DNA from: Ruegeria sp. PrR005
Lineage (GTDB): Bacteria > Pseudomonadota > Alphaproteobacteria > Rhodobacterales > Rhodobacteraceae
DNA length: 64,000 bases
Direction: 5' to 3'
Assembly (NCBI RefSeq): GCF_010500245.1
Contig: NZ_JAAGOX010000055.1
Location: forward strand, 62,001 to 126,000
The notes beneath the pieces were generated by a model. It was not told where the DNA came from. It was given only the letters and a program-made list of their open reading frames with translations, and searched no databases. Each line of letters opens with the position of its first letter. Position 1 is the first letter of the stretch. Of this stretch, positions 40,939 to 48,861 are shown in pieces. The position numbers and the translations under genes were made by a program.

Positions 40939-41238
40939 GTGTCCCGTACGACAAGACCCAGCTTCGGCACCTTGCTGTTCTTCGCGGTTTCCTTCGCCTT
41001 GAGCACCTATTTCACCTTTGCCGCCGTACAGGGCGATTTCGGGTTGTTCCGCCGGGTGGAAATCGCGGCGGAACGGGACATGCTGTCGCGCAAGCTGACG
41101 GAGCTTCAAGGTCAGATTGACCAGATGGAGAACCTCACTCAGCGCCTCTCCGACGATTTCCTCGATCTTGATCTGCTGGACGAACAGGCCCGCTCGGTCT
41201 TGGGACTGCTGCGCTCGGACGAAATCGTCATACGCTGA
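40939..41238 (+). CDS. FtsB/DivIC-family septum formation initiator
   Basis: A 99-residue bitopic membrane protein. One span (about 9-29, GTLLFFAVSFALSTYFTFAAV) is followed by a coiled coil (about 40-80, AAERDMLSRKLTELQGQIDQMENLTQRLSDD) and the family C-terminus LDLDLLDEQARSVLGLLRSDEIVI. It probably acts in the divisome with FtsL- and FtsQ-like partners. The start is GTG. In alphaproteobacteria this gene commonly precedes pdhA, as here. Confidence 0.9.
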   Translation: MSRTTRPSFGTLLFFAVSFALSTYFTFAAVQGDFGLFRRVEIAAERDMLSRKLTELQGQIDQMENLTQRLSDDFLDLDLLDEQARSVLGLLRSDEIVIR

Positions 41239-41248
41239 GGCCGGGCGC

Positions 41249-41294
41249 AGGATTTCACGGAAATCCTGTAGCAAAATCTTCGTTGAAGATTTTG
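41249..41294. repeat. two adjacent hairpin-forming palindromes between divIC and pdhA
   Basis: AGGATTTC-ACG-GAAATCCT (41249-41267) and CAAAATCTTC-GTT-GAAGATTTTG (41272-41294) lie four bases apart. The pair resembles extragenic tandem-hairpin elements I recall from other Rhodobacteraceae. It begins 11 bases after the divIC-like stop and may end that transcript or protect its 3' end. Confidence 0.65.
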
Positions 41295-41362
41295 AGTGCG
41301 CGGTGGCAGATTTCCCCCGCGTCATATTATCTCTCGCCATGAGCACTCAAATGCTTTATTCA

Positions 41363-41382
41363 ATAGTTTAATGCTAAACTAT
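41363..41382 (+). promoter_or_regulatory. candidate operator upstream of pdhA, shared with lpd
   Basis: ATAGTTTA-ATGC-TAAACTAT (41363-41382), a perfect AT-rich palindrome ending 23 bases before the pdhA start. It differs by one base over 19 positions from the site before lpd at 25284-25303. Its closeness to the start suggests control by repression, but the regulator is not in evidence. Confidence 0.7.
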
Positions 41383-41405
41383 CTTGCCGCAAGGGGGAGA
41401 CCGCA

Positions 41406-42398
41406 GTGACGACCGCCAAAAAGACGCCAAGAAAATCAAATATTTCGGCTGACGAGCTGAAACACTATTATCGCGAAATGCTACTGATCCGCCGATTCGA
41501 GGAAAAGGCCGGCCAATTGTACGGCATGGGGCTGATCGGCGGTTTCTGCCACCTCTACATCGGCCAGGAGGCTGTTGTCGTCGGGCTCGAAGCTGCCACC
41601 GAAGAGGGCGACAAGCGTATCACGTCCTACCGCGATCACGGCCACATGCTCGCCTGCGGCATGGATCCGGGCGGCGTGATGGCCGAACTGACCGGCCGCA
41701 TCGGCGGGCTCAGCAAGGGCAAGGGCGGCTCGATGCACATGTTCTCGAAAGAGAAACATTTCTATGGCGGCCACGGCATCGTCGGCGCGCAGGTGCCGCT
41801 GGGCGCGGGCCTGGCCTTTGCCGACAAGTATCTGGACAACGGCCGCGTCACCTTCGCCTATTTCGGCGACGGCGCCGCCAATCAGGGCCAGGTCTATGAG
41901 ACCTTCAACATGGCGGCCCTGTGGAAGCTGCCGGTGATCTTCGTCATCGAAAACAACCAGTATGCCATGGGCACTGCCCAGAAACGCTCGACCTCCTCGC
42001 CCGATATCTATACGCGCGGCGAGGCCTTCGGCATCCCCGGCGAAACCGTCGATGGCATGAACGTGCTGTCGGTGAAAGAGGCCGGGGAAAAGGCCGTGGC
42101 TCACTGCCGCGCTGGCAAGGGCCCCTATATCCTCGAGGTCAAGACCTATCGCTATCGCGGCCACTCGATGTCGGACCCGGCCAAGTACCGGACCCGCGAA
42201 GAGGTGCAGAAAGTGCGCGAACAGAGCGACCCGATCGAGATGGTGCGCGAGATGCTGCTCAGCGGCAAACACGCCACCGAGGATGACCTGAAGGCGATCG
42301 ACAAGGAGATCAAGGAGATCGTCAACCAGGCCGCCGAATTCTCGAAAGAAAGCCCCGAGCCGTCCGTGGACGAGCTCTGGACCGATATCTACGCCTGA
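41406..42398 (+). CDS. pdhA: pyruvate dehydrogenase E1 alpha subunit
   Basis: With PdhB it forms the TPP-dependent E1 that decarboxylates pyruvate and acetylates the lipoyl group of E2. 330 residues; TPP-binding motif [31 protein letters not shown], phosphorylation-loop-like [21 protein letters not shown] and [26 protein letters not shown] match the alphaproteobacterial heterotetrameric type. The start is GTG with GGGGGAGA upstream. First gene of pdhABC, 14 bases before pdhB. Confidence 0.97.
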
Positions 42399-42655: not shown

Positions 42656-43795
42656 GAAAGCGTCGAGGCGGTGCCAGCAGCCGCACCCGCGGCTGCCGCG
42701 GGCAACGAGGCGGCCTCCGCAGGAGGCTCCGAGGCGCCCGCAACCCCTGCCCCGGCTGCGGTCCCCGCTGCGCCACAGGTGGACCTCTCGCCCGACTGGC
42801 CTGCGGATGCGCCGATGAAAACCCAGACCGTGCGCGAGGCGCTGCGCGATGCGATGGCAGAAGAGATGCGCGCCGACGAGGCCGTCTATCTGATGGGCGA
42901 GGAAGTCGCTGAATACCAGGGCGCCTACAAGATCTCCCAGGGCATGCTGGATGAGTTCGGCTCAAAGCGCGTGATCGACACGCCGATCACCGAGCACGGG
43001 TTTGCCGGGATCGCGGTTGGCTCCGCCTTTGGCGGGCTCAAGCCCATCGTCGAATTCATGACCTTCAACTTCGCCATGCAGGCGATCGACCAGATCATCA
43101 ACTCGGCGGCCAAGACGCTTTACATGTCTGGCGGACAGATGGGCTGTCCCATCGTGTTCCGTGGCCCCAACGGCGCCGCGGCCCGCGTGGGTGCCCAGCA
43201 CAGCCAGGACTATGCCGCCTGGTACATGCAGATCCCCGGCCTGAAAGTGGCGATGCCCTATTCGGCCGCCGATTACAAAGGCCTGATGAAGACCGCGATC
43301 CGCGATCCCAACCCGGTGATCTTCCTGGAAAACGAGATCCTTTACGGCCGCAGCTTCGAGGTGCCTCAGGTCGATGACCTTGTCGTACCTTTCGGCAAGG
43401 CCCGGATCTGGCGCGAGGGCACCGATGTGACCATCGTCAGCTTCGGCATTGGCATGCAATATGCGCTCGAAGCCGCCGAGCGGCTGGCCGCTGACGGTAT
43501 CAGCGCCGAGGTTATCGACCTGCGCACGCTGCGCCCGATGGACCTGCCGACCGTGATCGCCTCGGTGATGAAGACCAATCGTCTGGTCACCGTCGAGGAA
43601 GGCTGGCCGCAGGGCTCCGTCGGCAGTTACATCGCCTCCGAGGTGATGCAACAGGCCTTCGACTATCTCGACGCGCCGATCATCACCTGCACGGGTAAGG
43701 ACGTACCGATGCCCTATGCCGCGAACCTGGAAAAACTGGCGCTGGTCACCACCGATGAAGTGGTCGCAGCCGTCAAACAAGTGACCTATCGGTAA
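42413..43795 (+). CDS. pdhB: pyruvate dehydrogenase E1 beta subunit with N-terminal lipoyl domain
   Basis: 460 residues, longer than ordinary E1 beta (~330) because of an added lipoyl domain (about 1-80, lipoylated Lys in [13 protein letters not shown]) and an Ala/Pro-rich linker (about 81-130). The catalytic part follows ([78 protein letters not shown]). This fusion is known in alphaproteobacteria. The lipoyl domain is nearly identical to that of PdhC, also at DNA level. Confidence 0.97.
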
Positions 43796-43807
43796 GGAGC
43801 GACAGAG

Positions 43808-44050
43808 ATGCCCACCGAAATTCTGATGCCCGCCCTCTCTCCCACCATGGAGGAAGGCACGCTCGCCAAATGGCTGGTCAAGGAAGGCGACACCGTATCT
43901 TCCGGTGATCTTCTGGCCGAGATCGAGACCGATAAGGCGACGATGGAGTTCGAAGCCGTCGACGAAGGCATCGTCGGCAAGATCCTGGTGCCCGAGGGCA
44001 CCGAAGGGGTCAAGGTGAACACCCCCATCGCGGTCCTGCTGGAAGAGGGC
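43808..44050 (+). repeat. lipoyl-domain direct repeat, copy in pdhC
   Basis: Second copy of the near-identical lipoyl-domain coding sequence (see 42413-42655). Confidence 0.85.
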
Positions 44051-45127
44051 GAAAGCGCGGGCGATATCGCCAGCGCGCCCAAGGCGGCCCCGGCCGCCGC
44101 CGCGGGCAACGAGGCCGCCCCTGCGGCGTCGGAGGCGCCCGCAGCGGCGCCCACCCCCGCCCCGGCCGCGCCCAAGGGTGCCGACGGCGGCCGAGTCTTC
44201 GCCTCGCCGCTGGCCCGCCGGATCGCCGCCGACAAGGGGCTCGATCTGTCACAGATCGCAGGTTCCGGCCCGCATGGCCGCATCGTCAAGGCCGATGTGA
44301 TCGGGGCCACCGCGCAACCGGCAGCTGCGGCTGCCGCAGCGCCTGCTGCCGCAGCTCCCGCCACCCCTGCTGCGGCTCCCGCTGCTGCACCGAGCGGACC
44401 CAGCGCCGATATGGTTGCCCGCATGTACGAGGGCCGCGAATACGAAGAGGTCAAGCTCGACGGTATGCGCAAGACCATCGCCGCACGCCTGTCCGAGGCC
44501 AAGCAGACGATCCCGCATTTCTACCTGCGCCGCGATATCAAGCTGGATGCGCTGATGAAGTTCCGCGCCCAGCTGAACAAGCAGCTCGAAGGGCGCGGCG
44601 TCAAGCTGAGCGTCAACGACTTCATCATCAAGGCGGTGGCCAATGCGCTGCAACAGGTGCCCGACTGCAACGCGGTCTGGGCTGGCGACCGGGTGCTGAA
44701 GCTGAAACCCTCGGACGTGGCCGTTGCGGTCGCCATCGAGGGCGGGCTGTTCACACCGGTGCTGAAAGACGCCGACATGAAGTCGCTCTCGGCGCTGTCG
44801 ACCGAGATGAAGGACCTGGCCACCCGCGCCCGCGACCGCAAGCTGGCACCGCAGGAATACCAGGGCGGCAGCTTTGCCATCTCGAACCTGGGCATGTTCG
44901 GCATCGACAATTTCGACGCCATCGTGAACCCGCCGCATGCGGGTATCCTGGCGGTCGGCTCCGGGGTCAAGAAACCGGTGGTCGGCGCCGACGGCGAGTT
45001 GACCGTGGCGACCGTGATGTCGGTGACCATGTCGGTCGATCACCGGGTGATCGACGGCGCGCTCGGCGCGCAGCTGTTGCAGGCGATCGTCGACAACCTG
45101 GAAAACCCGATGGTGATGCTGGCCTGA
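43808..45127 (+). CDS. pdhC: dihydrolipoamide acetyltransferase E2 of pyruvate dehydrogenase
   Basis: The core E2 that passes acetyl groups from the lipoyl arm to CoA. 439 residues in order: lipoyl domain (about 1-80, [11 protein letters not shown]), Ala/Pro linker, E3/E1-binding domain (about 137-172, [34 protein letters not shown]), a second Ala/Pro linker and the catalytic domain (about 215-439) with the [16 protein letters not shown] motif (HxxxDG). Starts 12 bases after pdhB. E3 is supplied by lpd at 24-25 kb. Confidence 0.98.
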
Positions 45128-45150
45128 CGGCCTGACACTTACAAACACCC

Positions 45151-45184
45151 AAAAGCCCCGGTTCACGACCGGGGCTTTTCGTTT
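45151..45184 (+). terminator. terminator of the pdh operon
   Basis: AAAAGCCCCGG (45151-45161) and CCGGGGCTTTT (45169-45179), 7-base loop, followed by a T-rich stretch. Confidence 0.9.
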
Positions 45185-45324
45185 GTTGTGCAGCTGCTGG
45201 TTTCGATTGGCCTCTCCGAGCCCAAAGTGACGGATGCTGCAAATTGCATGAATGGATTGAAACGCGCATTGCCGCCATTGGCACCAGCAGGTGCGGTGAG
45301 GTGGCTACCGTTGGGCAAGCGAGT

Positions 45325-46353
45325 TCATGTAATTGGGGCGGAGCTTGTTTTCATATTTTCATACAGGGATCTCAGGCTTTCCTGTCCGCCCTCGGTGTCC
45401 ATAGCTGACACCCCGAGAAAAACCTCTGCCTCCTTTGAGGCGCGAATCTGCACCCCAAAGCTATTGCTGTACGCAAGCTGTCGTGCTTCCTCTTCTGTGA
45501 GCTTCGCCATCAAGACAACATCCACATTGTTTGGTTCACGTGAGCAACGCCAGGAGATATCAATTCGTTGATCTTCGCCGTTCACAACGATTTCGACGAC
45601 TCCAAAATTACAGAGTTCGTCTTGCCTTCCTTGCGCTTCAATAACAGCGAAAAACATGAACCCAACGTCCTTTGCATGGGTCAAAATAACCTTGTGCCGA
45701 CCGTAAACAGAGTCCCTCGTGCCGCGAACATAGAGCATTTGCGATCGCATCTCCGTGCCCCACACAACTTCCGTCGCACCACCCGTAACCATCCGGTGTT
45801 CCCTGAGTTCATCTTCGCCCAACTCAAGATGTTTATCGCTTGCTGTGCCCGCCGAAAGACTGAGAAATCCAAGCGAGACGCCCATCTGGTCTAGAAATTC
45901 GGCTATCCCAGCCGAAAGCACTTGTGATTTTTCTACGTCCTCTGGCACAGGGTTTTTATAGGCGAAGCGGTGCACCCCAAATCTTGCACCATCTGGAAAA
46001 TGCCTTAGCCGCCCACCGGCAAACATAAGAGTTGCGGCGCTTAAACATTTGCCTGAACTAAGAGTTCTTGCGACGATCAGATCATCATCGTTTATTGGTT
46101 CAAGAGCATATGTGCCTATCGAGGTTTCGAGTCCGTACGTACGAATTACACACCCAAGCTTTATACCCTCCTCGGCATCACCGCCCGGCGAGTTGATATA
46201 GACGGTAGTACGAGGGGGGACGCCCGCAGTTTCAATGAGTTTTAGTAACCTATCGGCATCCCCTCTAACAATTGCACCAAATGCGTTGATGTGGCGAAAA
46301 CCTCCGAACAATTTTTCGAGTTCTGTTTGCTCGTCTGTGTATTCAAATTGCAA
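45325..46353 (-). CDS. ClpP-fold (COG3904-like) protein with an unassigned C-terminal domain
   Basis: About 342 residues. Residues ~50-200 look like a ClpP/crotonase-fold serine protease relative: TVYINSPGGDAEEGIKLGCVIR, then SSGKCLSAATLMFAGGRLRHFPDGARFGVHRF, with candidate catalytic Ser105 in CLSA and His128 in VHRF. Residues ~202-342 (MLYVRGTRDSVYGRHKVILTHAKDVGFMFFAVIEAQG and onward) match nothing I recognise. No signal peptide or membrane span, unlike many COG3904 proteins. Both available starts are TTG; the one at 46353 has AAGGGG six bases ahead, while 46377 has none. Base composition is clearly less GC-rich than its neighbours, suggesting recent acquisition. Confidence 0.75.
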   Translation of the reverse strand: MQFEYTDEQTELEKLFGGFRHINAFGAIVRGDADRLLKLIETAGVPPRTTVYINSPGGDAEEGIKLGCVIRTYGLETSIGTYALEPINDDDLIVARTLSSGKCLSAATLMFAGGRLRHFPDGARFGVHRFAYKNPVPEDVEKSQVLSAGIAEFLDQMGVSLGFLSLSAGTASDKHLELGEDELREHRMVTGGATEVVWGTEMRSQMLYVRGTRDSVYGRHKVILTHAKDVGFMFFAVIEAQGRQDELCNFGVVEIVVNGEDQRIDISWRCSREPNNVDVVLMAKLTEEEARQLAYSNSFGVQIRASKEAEVFLGVSAMDTEGGQESLRSLYENMKTSSAPIT

Positions 46354-46380
46354 ATCTGACCCCTTTTTCCGGGACAAAAT

Positions 46381-46703
46381 CTAACATGCTGGCTGGAAGC
46401 ATTTAGGTACGGGAGTCAGCTTCATCACAATAGGCAAACGTTACTCGGCGCTTGCAACGAAGATCCAATCCGGGATGGGCACTTTTCACTGCGGTCACTA
46501 AGCGCCCGTTATGGGGCATTCAAGGATACACAACCAACGGTAGCTTCGTCCCGCTAGCGGAAGCTGAGACAGGTCGAACCACAGCTCACCCGAAAGCGCT
46601 ATAGGAAGCCAAAAAAGGGAGCGCCCCCGCCCCCACAGTCTTTTCCCAAGTACTCACCTACACCACGACCGCCGCCAGCACCAAACCGGCGGCGGCGCGC
46701 TGA
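46381..46703. other. non-coding stretch between the ClpP-fold gene and cysK
   Basis: About 320 bases without a credible ORF, tRNA or known RNA. It contains an imperfect inverted repeat around 46541-46566 (AGCTTCG...CGGAAGCT) and a GC hairpin at 46669-46695 (CCGCCGCC/GGCGGCGG) just after the cysK stop, which may end cysK transcription. Composition is intermediate between the ClpP-fold gene and core genes. It may be remnant DNA of an insertion; no attachment-site repeat was found. Confidence 0.5.
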
Positions 46704-47768
46704 TCAGTATTGATAACCGGGCGTCGAGGCCGACAGCGCCTGCTCGGCCTCGTCCATCTCGGCTGCGATATCCTCGAACAGCGGTGTCGAGAGGTACCGC
46801 TCGCCGGTATCGGGCAGCATCGCCAGCAGCACCGAGCCCTCGGGCGCGGTTTCGGCGACCTTCATCGCTGCCGCCAGGCTGGCACCGCCGGATATGCCGG
46901 TCAGGATGCCTTCCTCCGCCGCCAGCCGTTTGGACCAGGCGATGCTTTCCGGGCCGCTCACCGGTTCCAGCGCGTCGAAATAGCCCTGATCGAGCGCCTC
47001 TTGCAGCACCAGCGGGATGAAATCCGGGGTCCAGCCCTGGATCGGATGCGGGTTGAAGGCGGGATGGGTCGCGGCGGGTTCACCCTCGGCGTTGCGCTGT
47101 TGCGCCTCGCCCGACTGCACCAGCGCGGCATTGGCGGGCTCGCTCAGGGTGATCTTCAACCCGGGCCGCGCGCCTTTCAGCACACGGCCTAGGCCGGTGA
47201 CGGTGCCGCCGGTGCCATAGCCCAGCACCACGTGATCCAGCCGTTCGCCTTCGAAATCGCCGAGGATCTCTTGTGCGGTGGTAGCCGCGTGAATATCGGC
47301 GTTGTCCTTGGTTTCGAACTGATGCGCCAAGAACCAGCCATTCGCCTCGGCCAGTTCTTTGGCTTTCATCACCATACCGACCGCCTTGTCCTCCTTGCGG
47401 GTCAGCACCACCTTGGCGCCCAGCATCCGCATCAGACGCCGCCGTTCGACCGAGAAGCCGTCATGCATGGTGATGACCAGCGGATAGCCCTTGGCGGCGC
47501 AGACCATGGCAAGTCCGATGCCGGTATTGCCGCTGGTCGCCTCGACCACGGTCTGGCCCGGCTGCAACCGGCCCTCGCGTTCGGCGGCCTCGATGATGTT
47601 CAGCGCCAGCCGGTCCTTGACCGACCCCGCCGGATTGAACGCCTCGAATTTCACATACATGGTGACATGTTCGGGCGCGATGGCGTTCAGCCGGATCACG
47701 GGCGTATTGCCCACCGTTTCCAGGATCGAGCCATAAAGCCGCCCGCGGCCAGTGGTCGTAAAGATCAT
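46704..47768 (-). CDS. cysK: cysteine synthase A (O-acetylserine sulfhydrylase)
   Basis: A PLP enzyme that makes cysteine from O-acetylserine and sulfide. 354 residues, about 40 more than classical CysK because of a C-terminal extension (LFEDIAAEMDEAEQALSASTPGYQY). Lys-PLP motif FEAFNPAGSVKDRLALNIIE, substrate loop EATSGNTGIGLAMVCAAKGY, PLP phosphate loop GYGTGGTVTGLGRVLK and LTGISGGASLAAA are intact. The start at 47768 has GGGGG upstream; a longer frame reaching 47921 is not supported. cysE lies upstream in the same direction. Confidence 0.95.
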   Translation of the reverse strand: MIFTTTGRGRLYGSILETVGNTPVIRLNAIAPEHVTMYVKFEAFNPAGSVKDRLALNIIEAAEREGRLQPGQTVVEATSGNTGIGLAMVCAAKGYPLVITMHDGFSVERRRLMRMLGAKVVLTRKEDKAVGMVMKAKELAEANGWFLAHQFETKDNADIHAATTAQEILGDFEGERLDHVVLGYGTGGTVTGLGRVLKGARPGLKITLSEPANAALVQSGEAQQRNAEGEPAATHPAFNPHPIQGWTPDFIPLVLQEALDQGYFDALEPVSGPESIAWSKRLAAEEGILTGISGGASLAAAMKVAETAPEGSVLLAMLPDTGERYLSTPLFEDIAAEMDEAEQALSASTPGYQY

Positions 47769-47983
47769 CGTTTGCCCCCAAGTCAAACTGCGGAAAGTCT
47801 CGTTGTTGCACGGAATAATGCGTCCCGCGGGGCGGATCCGCAAGGCGGTCCATGTACGATAAGACCAGCCTTTTCCCGTTGCGGTACAAAACTGGAACCT
47901 TGGACTGCCACAGCTCGCCATTTAAGATCAAAAGTCACCAGCAAGCTCTTCTACCATAACAATTTTATTCAATACAACGGAAA

Positions 47984-48011
47984 CAAAAAAGGGCGCAAAG
48001 CACCCCTTTCT
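47984..48011 (-). terminator. terminator of cysE
   Basis: On the minus strand AAAGGGGTGC-TTT-GCGCCC is followed by six T residues (plus-strand 47984-48011). The stem has one bulge. It separates cysE from cysK. Confidence 0.75.
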
Positions 48012-48048
48012 TGTTTGCGTGACAAATGAATGCTGCGGTACGGGCGCC

Positions 48049-48861
48049 TCAGTCCGACCCGTTCGGAAACCGCTGATCCATGTTGACCGAGGGCTGGTCG
48101 CAGCCCGCCTCGCCCACGATCTTGGCCGGAATGCCCGCGACTGTCTTGCAGGGGGGAACCTCGCTCAGCACCACGGAACCGGCGGCGATGCGGCTGCAAT
48201 GGCCGACCTTGATGTTGCCCAGTACCTTGGCCCCTGCCCCGATCAGCACACCATCGCCGATCTTGGGGTGGCGGTCCTCTTCTTCCTTGCCCGTCCCGCC
48301 CAGCGTCACCGAATGCAGCATCGAGACATTGTCGCCCACCACGGCGGTCTCGCCGATCACGATCGAATGGGCGTGGTCGATCATGATGCCCTTGCCGATC
48401 CGGGCCGCCGGGTGAATGTCGACGCCAAAGATTTCGGACACTCGCATCTGGAAGAAATAGGCCAGGTCATAGCGTTTGCGCGTCCACAGCCAATGCGCCA
48501 CGCGATAGGCCTGCATCGCCTGATACCCTTTGAAGTACAGGATCGGCTGCAACAGTCTGTGGCAGGCCGGGTCACGCTCGTACACCGCCATCAGGTCGGC
48601 CCGCGCGGCCTCGATCAGTTCGGGCGCGCTGTCATAAGCATCATCGACGATCTCACGCAGCACAACCATCGACATCTCGTTCGAGCAGAGCTTGGCCGCG
48701 ATGCGATAGGACAGCGCCTTTTCCAGGTTCCTGTGGTGCAGTATACAGGCATGGACCAGCCCGCCCATCAACGGTTCCTTGTCCACGGCCTCCAGTGCTT
48801 CGGCTGTGATCCGGTCCCAGACCGGGTCGACGGGGGCGAGTTTGGTGCGTGTTTCCATCAT
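48049..48861 (-). CDS. cysE: serine O-acetyltransferase
   Basis: Acetylates serine with acetyl-CoA, giving the substrate of CysK. 270 residues: an N-terminal helical domain (about 1-140, WDRITAEALEAVDKEPLMGGLVHACILHH) and a left-handed beta-helix with hexapeptide repeats (about 150-245, FGVDIHPAARIGKGIMIDHAHSIVIGETAVVGDNVSM, KIGDGVLIGAGAKVLGNIKVG). Catalytic His/Asp lie in HPAARIG...IDHAHS. A terminator follows, so it is probably transcribed apart from cysK. Confidence 0.96.
   Translation of the reverse strand: MMETRTKLAPVDPVWDRITAEALEAVDKEPLMGGLVHACILHHRNLEKALSYRIAAKLCSNEMSMVVLREIVDDAYDSAPELIEAARADLMAVYERDPACHRLLQPILYFKGYQAMQAYRVAHWLWTRKRYDLAYFFQMRVSEIFGVDIHPAARIGKGIMIDHAHSIVIGETAVVGDNVSMLHSVTLGGTGKEEEDRHPKIGDGVLIGAGAKVLGNIKVGHCSRIAAGSVVLSEVPPCKTVAGIPAKIVGEAGCDQPSVNMDQRFPNGSD

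What the first reader, a model, noticed from the sequence alone, without database searches (positions are those of the whole stretch)
45325..46353. Orphan ClpP-fold protein with unknown C-terminal domain in a compositionally foreign patch
A SPGG segment, a CLSA serine and a later VHRF histidine point to a ClpP/crotonase-fold serine hydrolase, fused to a ~140-residue region I cannot assign. The gene is clearly less GC-rich than its surroundings, uses a TTG start, stands alone between pdhC and cysK and is flanked by non-coding DNA. Such lone cargo genes are typical of recent insertion and sometimes of defence or stress functions.
Basis: partly seen in the sequence, partly recalled or inferred. 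Interest (0 to 1): 0.6.

Follow-up and report, generated by a model that had tools for sequence, protein, structure and literature searches.

The report
Phage-carried ClpP-like protein, possible defence gene
This lone foreign gene belongs to a small, unnamed family of ClpP-like proteins that temperate phages carry as a swappable extra gene, in one case right next to a known anti-virus gene, so it is a testable candidate for a new way in which phage-carrying bacteria resist other phages.

Summary
Window 45325-46353 (minus strand) is an intact 342-codon gene, TTG start, GC 49.7% against 63.3% in its flanks, found in none of four genus-mates. Residues 1-192 are a ClpP-like domain whose Ser105 and His128 align with ClpP's catalytic pair. 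The 'unknown' C-terminal domain is modelled with confidence as a beta-sandwich like IalB, without sequence kinship. Close homologs (45-51% identity) are rare: lone chromosomal genes, Rhizobium plasmids, two prophages or prophage edges, and 10 IMG/VR phage contigs. In phages the gene is swappable low-GC cargo (a moron): in two phage types it lies opposite the late genes, and sister phages hold other content in the same slots. One copy is followed 7 nt later by a DUF4238 gene (a published anti-T7 defence domain), one starts 15 nt behind a repressor, and one sister phage holds a PD-T7-4-like gene in the slot. Secreted relatives keep a hydrophobic start and three cysteines that all 12 aligned close members lack, which suggests a cytoplasmic branch. 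Best reading: a lysogen-expressed ClpP-fold hydrolase acting against superinfecting phages. Cargo status is well supported; the defence role rests on association, and no activity was tested.

The parts
45325..46353 (-). the gene: 342-aa ClpP-like / IalB-fold protein, TTG start
   Evidence: ORF; start supported by homologs; GC 0.497
46360..46368 (-). AAAAAGGGG, possible ribosome-binding site 6 nt before the TTG
   Evidence: sequence; role inferred
45778..46353 (-). residues 1-192, ClpP-like hydrolase domain
   Evidence: Foldseek to ClpP E 2.6e-6; hhalign prob 95.1, E 3.4e-8; no Pfam hit for the window protein
46180..46191 (-). SPGG (residues 55-58), ClpP-type SxGG loop
   Evidence: S55, G57 and G58 invariant in 16 of 16; role by analogy
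46039..46041 (-). Ser105 codon, predicted nucleophile
   Evidence: invariant in 16 of 16; aligned to ClpP catalytic Ser
45970..45972 (-). His128 codon, predicted general base
   Evidence: invariant in 16 of 16; aligned to ClpP catalytic His
45835..45837 (-). Asp173 codon, position of ClpP's catalytic Asp
   Evidence: aligned; D in 8 of 12 close members, otherwise N, N, T, K; G, G, G, Q in the 4 secreted ones
45328..45777 (-). residues 193-342, IalB-like beta-sandwich domain
   Evidence: AF2 pLDDT 92.4, pTM 0.86; PDB 3dtd Foldseek E 1.8e-3, prob 1.00; VIA Z 9.5, rmsd 4.2, 130 residues
45183..46690 (.). foreign segment between pdhC and cysK; right edge somewhere in 46650-46690
   Evidence: similarity to genus-mate G003 stops at 45182 and resumes at 46691; G004 and G001 match again from 46651 and 46661
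45151..45179 (.). terminator-like hairpin readable on both strands, downstream of the gene (and of pdhC)
   Evidence: 9 terminator-like sites in the region against 1.9 expected; function inferred
46617..46634 (-). terminator-like hairpin between cysK and the gene, on their strand
   Evidence: function inferred

Best explanation
The gene is of a phage-cargo (moron) family and here stands alone in a chromosome. It encodes a probably cytoplasmic ClpP-fold serine hydrolase (Ser105-His128, with Asp173 in this copy) joined to an IalB-fold beta-sandwich. Most likely it is expressed from the lysogen or host and acts against superinfecting phages: the beta-sandwich binds a phage product or an infection-altered host protein, and the ClpP-like domain cleaves it, or cleaves a host protein to abort the infection. 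Shown: the family, the fold of the C-terminal domain, the Ser/His register, the position inside several phage backgrounds, and other content in the same slots of sister phages. Inferred: cytoplasmic location, catalysis, target recognition by the beta-sandwich, expression in the lysogen, the anti-phage role, and that the window copy itself came from a phage.
For: Phage cargo: 10 IMG/VR contigs carry it. Of these, L042 (same contig as L037) is a transposase phage, L043 is a second type, and seven of the other eight were looked at and share one type (L047 was not looked at). In the L048 type it sits on the strand opposite the late genes, between head-tail adaptor Ad1 and head closure Hc1. In L043 it sits between tail chaperone and tape measure, again opposite; the 18 other loci with a detectable chaperone (of 24) have neither it nor its DUF4238 neighbour. 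In the transposase phage it begins 15 nt after a CI-type repressor, same strand. A Phyllobacterium copy has phage genes on both sides. Defence link: 7 nt downstream in L043 is DUF4238 (E 6.3e-22), and a single DUF4238 protein gave strong T7 resistance (PMC9122126, one passage seen); a sister phage of L048 holds in the slot a DUF4145 protein matching PD-T7-4 (E 7.5e-5). A published moron defence, Tab, has a similar layout (PMC10884400, passages seen). Catalysis: Ser and His invariant in 16 of 16, ClpP register. Cytoplasm: no strongly hydrophobic N-terminus (a hydropathy proxy, not a signal-peptide predictor), and three cysteine columns absent in 12 of 12 but present in 4 of 4 secreted relatives.
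Against: No PADLOC model matches the window protein or the two close and two distant relatives tested. Other cargo in the same slot includes genes with no known defence link (DUF1003; proteins without any Pfam hit), and some of it lies on the same strand as the late genes. No promoter-like site was found upstream on the gene's strand in the window or in L048. The Asp of the triad is not conserved, so activity is not assured. The model of the active-site region is unreliable. L043 is the only copy with a defence-type gene directly beside it, and the PD-T7-4 match is modest. No systematic search for defence genes near the chromosomal and plasmid copies was made.
Confidence: 0.5

Rival explanations
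1. Lysogenic-conversion gene for host fitness (protein quality control or stress), not aimed at phages.
For: Some slot-mates have no known defence link; copies stand outside phages, e.g. between what I read as atpC and lysC in G101 and on Rhizobium plasmids; secreted relatives sit on Pseudomonas megaplasmids near a response regulator.
Against: DUF4238 directly beside the L043 copy and a PD-T7-4-like gene in the L048-type slot; patchy presence: 4 of 390 sampled genomes of the order, own genome included, at E below 1e-60.
Confidence: 0.25
2. Counter-defence: the protein cleaves or blocks host defence proteins to help the phage.
For: Carried by phages; for jumbo phages a ClpP serine protease is named among proteases whose patchy spread would fit use against the host (PMC7824862, one passage seen).
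Against: Opposite strand to the late genes in two phage types and behind a repressor in a third, which points to lysogen rather than lytic expression (inference); present on chromosomes and plasmids.
Confidence: 0.12
3. A non-catalytic ClpP-fold binder (pseudo-enzyme); the beta-sandwich does the work.
For: Position 173 varies (D, N, T, K).
Against: Ser, His and SxGG invariant in 16 of 16; this copy has all three residues.
Confidence: 0.1
4. A phage head-maturation protease or a degenerate ClpP subunit.
For: Weak PHROG and NCBIfam hits to head maturation proteases (12 of 16 family members, best E 0.00028).
Against: 12.8 bits for the window protein against a 120-bit cut-off; L048 has its own head maturation protease as the third gene away (E 3.8e-86); the host genome has an ordinary ClpP.
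Confidence: 0.03

Closest known systems
ClpP (peptidase family S14, PF00574)
   Same: fold of residues 1-192, SxGG loop, Ser and His register
   Different: no Pfam hit for the window protein; C-terminal beta-sandwich; Asp not conserved in the family
IalB (PF06776, PDB 3dtd)
   Same: beta-sandwich fold of residues 193-342 (Z 9.5)
   Different: no sequence kinship found (hhalign E 0.14-0.57; no Pfam hit); no hydrophobic N-terminus
Secreted ClpP-like proteins of Pseudomonas megaplasmids (pQBR103 and others) and of Rhodobacterales genome G216
   Same: both domains, including the C-terminal one (hhalign E 1.1e-13)
   Different: signal-peptide-like start and three extra conserved cysteines; 22-26% identity
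Tab moron of Pseudomonas phage JBD26 (PMC10884400, passages seen)
   Same: single extra gene on the minus strand within the late region, prophage-borne defence
   Different: an 83-residue protein; a different family by size and described mechanism (tail assembly); not compared by sequence here
DUF4238 single-gene defence (PMC9122126, one passage seen)
   Same: neighbour in L043, same strand, 7 nt apart
   Different: different protein; seen beside this family once

Membership tests
ClpP / S14 | ClpP fold | tested here: met
   Foldseek E 2.6e-6, prob 1.00, with low TM-score (about 0.3 by query) because the region is poorly modelled; hhalign prob 95.1 (controls C-domain vs ClpP E 0.39, N-domain vs IalB E 0.71)
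ClpP / S14 | Ser-His-Asp triad | tested here: inconclusive
   all three align in this copy, but Asp varies in the family and the geometry could not be judged
ClpP / S14 | Pfam PF00574 match | tested here: not met
   0 families at E up to 10 for the window protein; 4 of 16 family members match, best E 0.0025
ClpP / S14 | AAA+ partner and 14-mer ring | not testable with these tools
   no complex was modelled
IalB (PF06776) | sequence profile | tested here: not met
   no Pfam hit in 16 members at E up to 0.1; hhalign E 0.14-0.57 against 10 IalB proteins
IalB (PF06776) | fold | tested here: met
   3dtd Z 9.5, next entry 6.0; Foldseek E 1.8e-3, no match at or under 0.001
IalB (PF06776) | secretion signal | tested here: not met
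   no strongly hydrophobic N-terminus (hydropathy proxy)
phage moron | extra gene, replaced or absent in sister phages at the same place | tested here: met
   4 of 17 carry it and 13 carry other cargo (some contigs are near-duplicates); second slot: 18 of 18 other loci lack it
phage moron | foreign composition | tested here: met
   GC 0.469-0.535 against 0.535-0.675 in the flanks, lower in 12 of 12, window included
phage moron | own promoter and terminator | tested here: inconclusive
   no promoter-like site upstream on its strand in the window or L048; terminator-like hairpins bracket the window copy, none follows the L048 copy
phage moron | expression in the lysogen | not testable with these tools
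   no transcript data
known anti-phage system | PADLOC model | tested here: not met
   0 hits for the window protein, L034, L048, L041 and L012 proteins
known anti-phage system | protection from phage | not testable with these tools
   needs plating assays
head maturation protease NF045542 | curated score of 120 bits | tested here: not met
   12.8 bits

The most novel reading that the evidence does not exclude
A new kind of prophage-borne anti-phage effector: a secreted ClpP/IalB-fold enzyme was turned into a cytoplasmic immune hydrolase by losing its signal peptide and disulfide cysteines, spread as a single-gene moron, and was then kept by bacteria after the phage was lost. Its beta-sandwich acts as the infection sensor, in place of the AAA+ partner that feeds ClpP.
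Probability: 0.35. Interest if true: 0.75.

Novelty: new variant of a known kind. Interest (0 to 1): 0.62.

Why it matters
Phage cargo slots are a proven source of new anti-viral systems, and the window protein matches no PADLOC or Pfam model and no NCBIfam model above its cut-off. If it defends, it would be a ClpP-fold immune effector with a beta-sandwich in place of the usual AAA+ partner, and it would suggest how a secreted enzyme can be re-used inside the cell. The predicted residues (Ser105, His128) make the idea directly testable in laboratory strains.

Tried and rejected
Crotonase rather than ClpP: the 50 structure matches shown (of 1469) are all ClpP. Chance ORF: rejected by homologs and by low dN/dS in two homolog pairs. 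Head maturation protease: rejected. Transposon insertion: no transposase ORF noticed beside it (by eye); the flanking 11-bp inverted repeat (45304-45314 / 46534-46544) is near chance (my estimate, about 0.3 per such region). No tRNA within 43000-48500. Upstream non-coding stretch against the phage collection: no match. Named phage genomes: no match with the window protein; five partial matches with the Phyllobacterium copy (E 9e-10 to 2e-3), the best an Agrobacterium phage gene labelled putative periplasmic protein. Host-wise descent: the tree puts the window copy with the Rhizobium plasmid, a MAG and the transposase-phage copy (95/98), but holding the three Rhodobacterales copies together is not rejected (p-AU 0.07). 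Active-site geometry: model unreliable there. Viral structure library: one match under E 0.001, an uncharacterised Vibrio phage protein (5.6e-4), not informative. First genome-collection scan with the window protein alone: none.

Papers: 'COG3904' (a name I recalled for the secreted relatives; no call gave it) with 'periplasmic' gave none. Searches for ClpP-like antiphage, moron or ClpP-fold genes gave listings (5 of 6, 14 of 14, 12 of 28 papers shown) none of whose titles or abstract starts described this family, or nothing, or one paper with a passage on a different, secreted PDZ-ClpP-like protease (PMC12419801). IalB with ClpP: 10 of 15 listed, none relevant by title. The library lacks most subscription journals, so absence from print is not shown.

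Rows left out of the 12-member comparison: L040 (truncated), L044 and L045 (near copies of L046), L047, L050 and L051 (cut by contig ends), L042 (same contig as L037), and the R. rhododendri plasmid (same scores as L033's record). The class-wide and phylum-wide samples gave no further close copy; one search had one partial match (G983, E 1.6e-21).

Full report
What is there. Window 45325-46353 (minus strand) is an intact gene of 342 codons with a TTG start. Conserved sequence begins at this start in all 12 aligned close members, window included; with starts set there, six are TTG, two GTG and four ATG. GC is 0.497 against 0.633 in the flanks. The genome has one match. Terminator-like hairpins lie on both sides of the gene (45151-45179 on both strands; 46617-46634 on the minus strand; 9 such sites in the region against 1.9 expected), but no promoter-like site lies upstream on its strand.

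Is it foreign here? Of four other genomes of the genus, none has this gene (the one hit, 28% identity over residues 106-199 in G001, is a different 553-codon reading frame). cysK was found in three of the four at the threshold used. In G003 the pdhC and cysK flanks are conserved (92% and 82%), but the interval holds other genes; from the ORFs I read an EamA-type transporter, an HxlR-type regulator and an OsmC-like protein (recalled families). In G001 and G004 the similarity ends just after cysK, and pdhC does not follow within the roughly 5.5 kb fetched. The segment (about 45183 to 46650-46690) is therefore specific to this genome among those searched. No tRNA lies near.

What the protein is. 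The window protein has no hit in Pfam or PADLOC, only a sub-cut-off hit in NCBIfam, and weak hits in PHROGs. A profile of residues 1-192 of 16 family members aligns with 7 ClpP proteins of relatives (hhalign probability 95.1, E 3.4e-8), with Ser105, His128 and Asp173 opposite ClpP's catalytic residues; the control pairs (C-domain against ClpP, N-domain against IalB) give E 0.39 and 0.71. A profile search of the PDB gives only weak ClpP hits (best E 0.2), in the same register. The predicted structure of the whole protein matches ClpP best (E 2.6e-6), but residues 77-136 have pLDDT under 50, so the geometry of the site cannot be judged. Ser, His and SxGG are invariant in 16 of 16; Asp173 is D in 8 of 12 close members (three of them near-identical) and not D in the 4 secreted ones.

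No sequence kinship with IalB was found, so this is a shared fold, not membership.

Relatives. Close homologs (45-51% identity to the window copy) were found in 3 of 389 other sampled genomes of the order at E below 1e-60, one of them truncated; in 4 records of the genome collection, one of which is the Rhizobium sp. L51/94 plasmid; on two Rhizobium plasmids, that one included; and on 10 IMG/VR contigs. Samples of 385 genomes of the class and 398 of the phylum gave none but the own genome, apart from one partial match. More distant relatives, many only over the first domain, are on Pseudomonas megaplasmids, in other plasmids and in Rhodobacterales. The four of these that were aligned end to end have a hydrophobic N-terminus and three cysteine positions (107, 226, 334 in window numbering) that none of the 12 close members has; Cys103 is shared by all 16. 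The split between the two groups has full support (100/100). I infer that the close group works in the cytoplasm; which state is ancestral was not tested.

Phage cargo. In L048-type phages the gene lies on the strand opposite the late genes, between Ad1 and Hc1. A scan with the L048 capsid protein was capped at the best 80 of 590 relatives; 25 had both flanks; of the 17 with Ad1 at least 88% identical, 4 carry this gene and 13 carry something else. From the ORFs these are a DUF1003 protein (2 loci), a 283-327-residue protein that looks membrane-bound (4), a DUF4145 protein (1) and small proteins that look secreted (6); one of each kind was searched in Pfam, two of the small ones. The DUF1003 gene and one kind of small protein lie on the same strand as the late genes, so not all cargo there is opposite. 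Some of the 17 are near-duplicates. Three more distant contigs have short slots of 156-283 bp. In L043 the gene lies between tail chaperone and tape measure, again opposite; of 24 loci found with the tape measure, 19 had a detectable chaperone, and the 18 other than L043's own contig have neither this gene nor DUF4238. In a transposase phage (Mu-like by my reading) it starts 15 nt after a CI-type repressor on the same strand, though only about 400 nt from the contig end. In Phyllobacterium phage genes lie on both sides, about 4.5 kb away on one side, with two non-phage-looking genes between; in G365 a tail tape-measure gene lies on one side and the contig ends on the other. L048 has its own head maturation protease, so the gene is not that enzyme. 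The gene's GC is lower than its flanks in 12 of 12.

Why defence is the leading guess. In L043 the next gene, 7 nt downstream on the same strand, is a DUF4238 protein (E 6.3e-22); a single DUF4238 protein gave strong T7 resistance in a P2-like phage hotspot (PMC9122126, one passage seen). A sister phage of L048 has, in the same slot, a DUF4145 protein that matches the PADLOC model PD-T7-4 (E 7.5e-5). The layout resembles Tab, a published moron defence on the minus strand in a late region (PMC10884400, passages seen). Against this: no PADLOC hit for the protein itself, slot-mates of no known defence link, no promoter found, and a triad Asp that varies. I put the defence reading at about one half.

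Verdict. The family is a new variant of a known kind (phage moron, ClpP fold) with an unusual architecture and a testable role.

Noticed in passing
window 45218-45282; L147, L148, L149, L153: A 37-66 bp intergenic element recurs at 77-89% identity in two genus-mates and on two Rhodobacterales plasmids: a short interspersed repeat.
   Followed up: partly
L040 8104-8595: A truncated copy of the gene, with a stop inside the match, lies among what I read as ribosomal-protein genes in G350: a decaying insertion.
   Followed up: no
L184 1283-3947: In the tape-measure slot of an L043 sister phage, a two-gene cargo begins with an ATPase-like protein with a GRNSSGKST Walker motif (family recalled, not searched).
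   Followed up: no
L046 33-1166: A second low-GC cargo gene in the same phage type is a sodium/calcium exchanger (PF01699, E 6.8e-24).
   Followed up: no
L012, L013, L014: Secreted ClpP-like proteins with the same C-terminal domain sit on Pseudomonas-group plasmids near a response regulator, with a Sel1-repeat protein also near on two of the three.
   Followed up: partly
L041 381-1679: One secreted relative carries an extra PAN-type domain (one search names one of 16 members; by the sequence it is this one, in G216).
   Followed up: no
window 41000-41499: Local GC dip to 0.53; it lies at the gap before what I read as pdhA and looks ordinary.
   Followed up: yes
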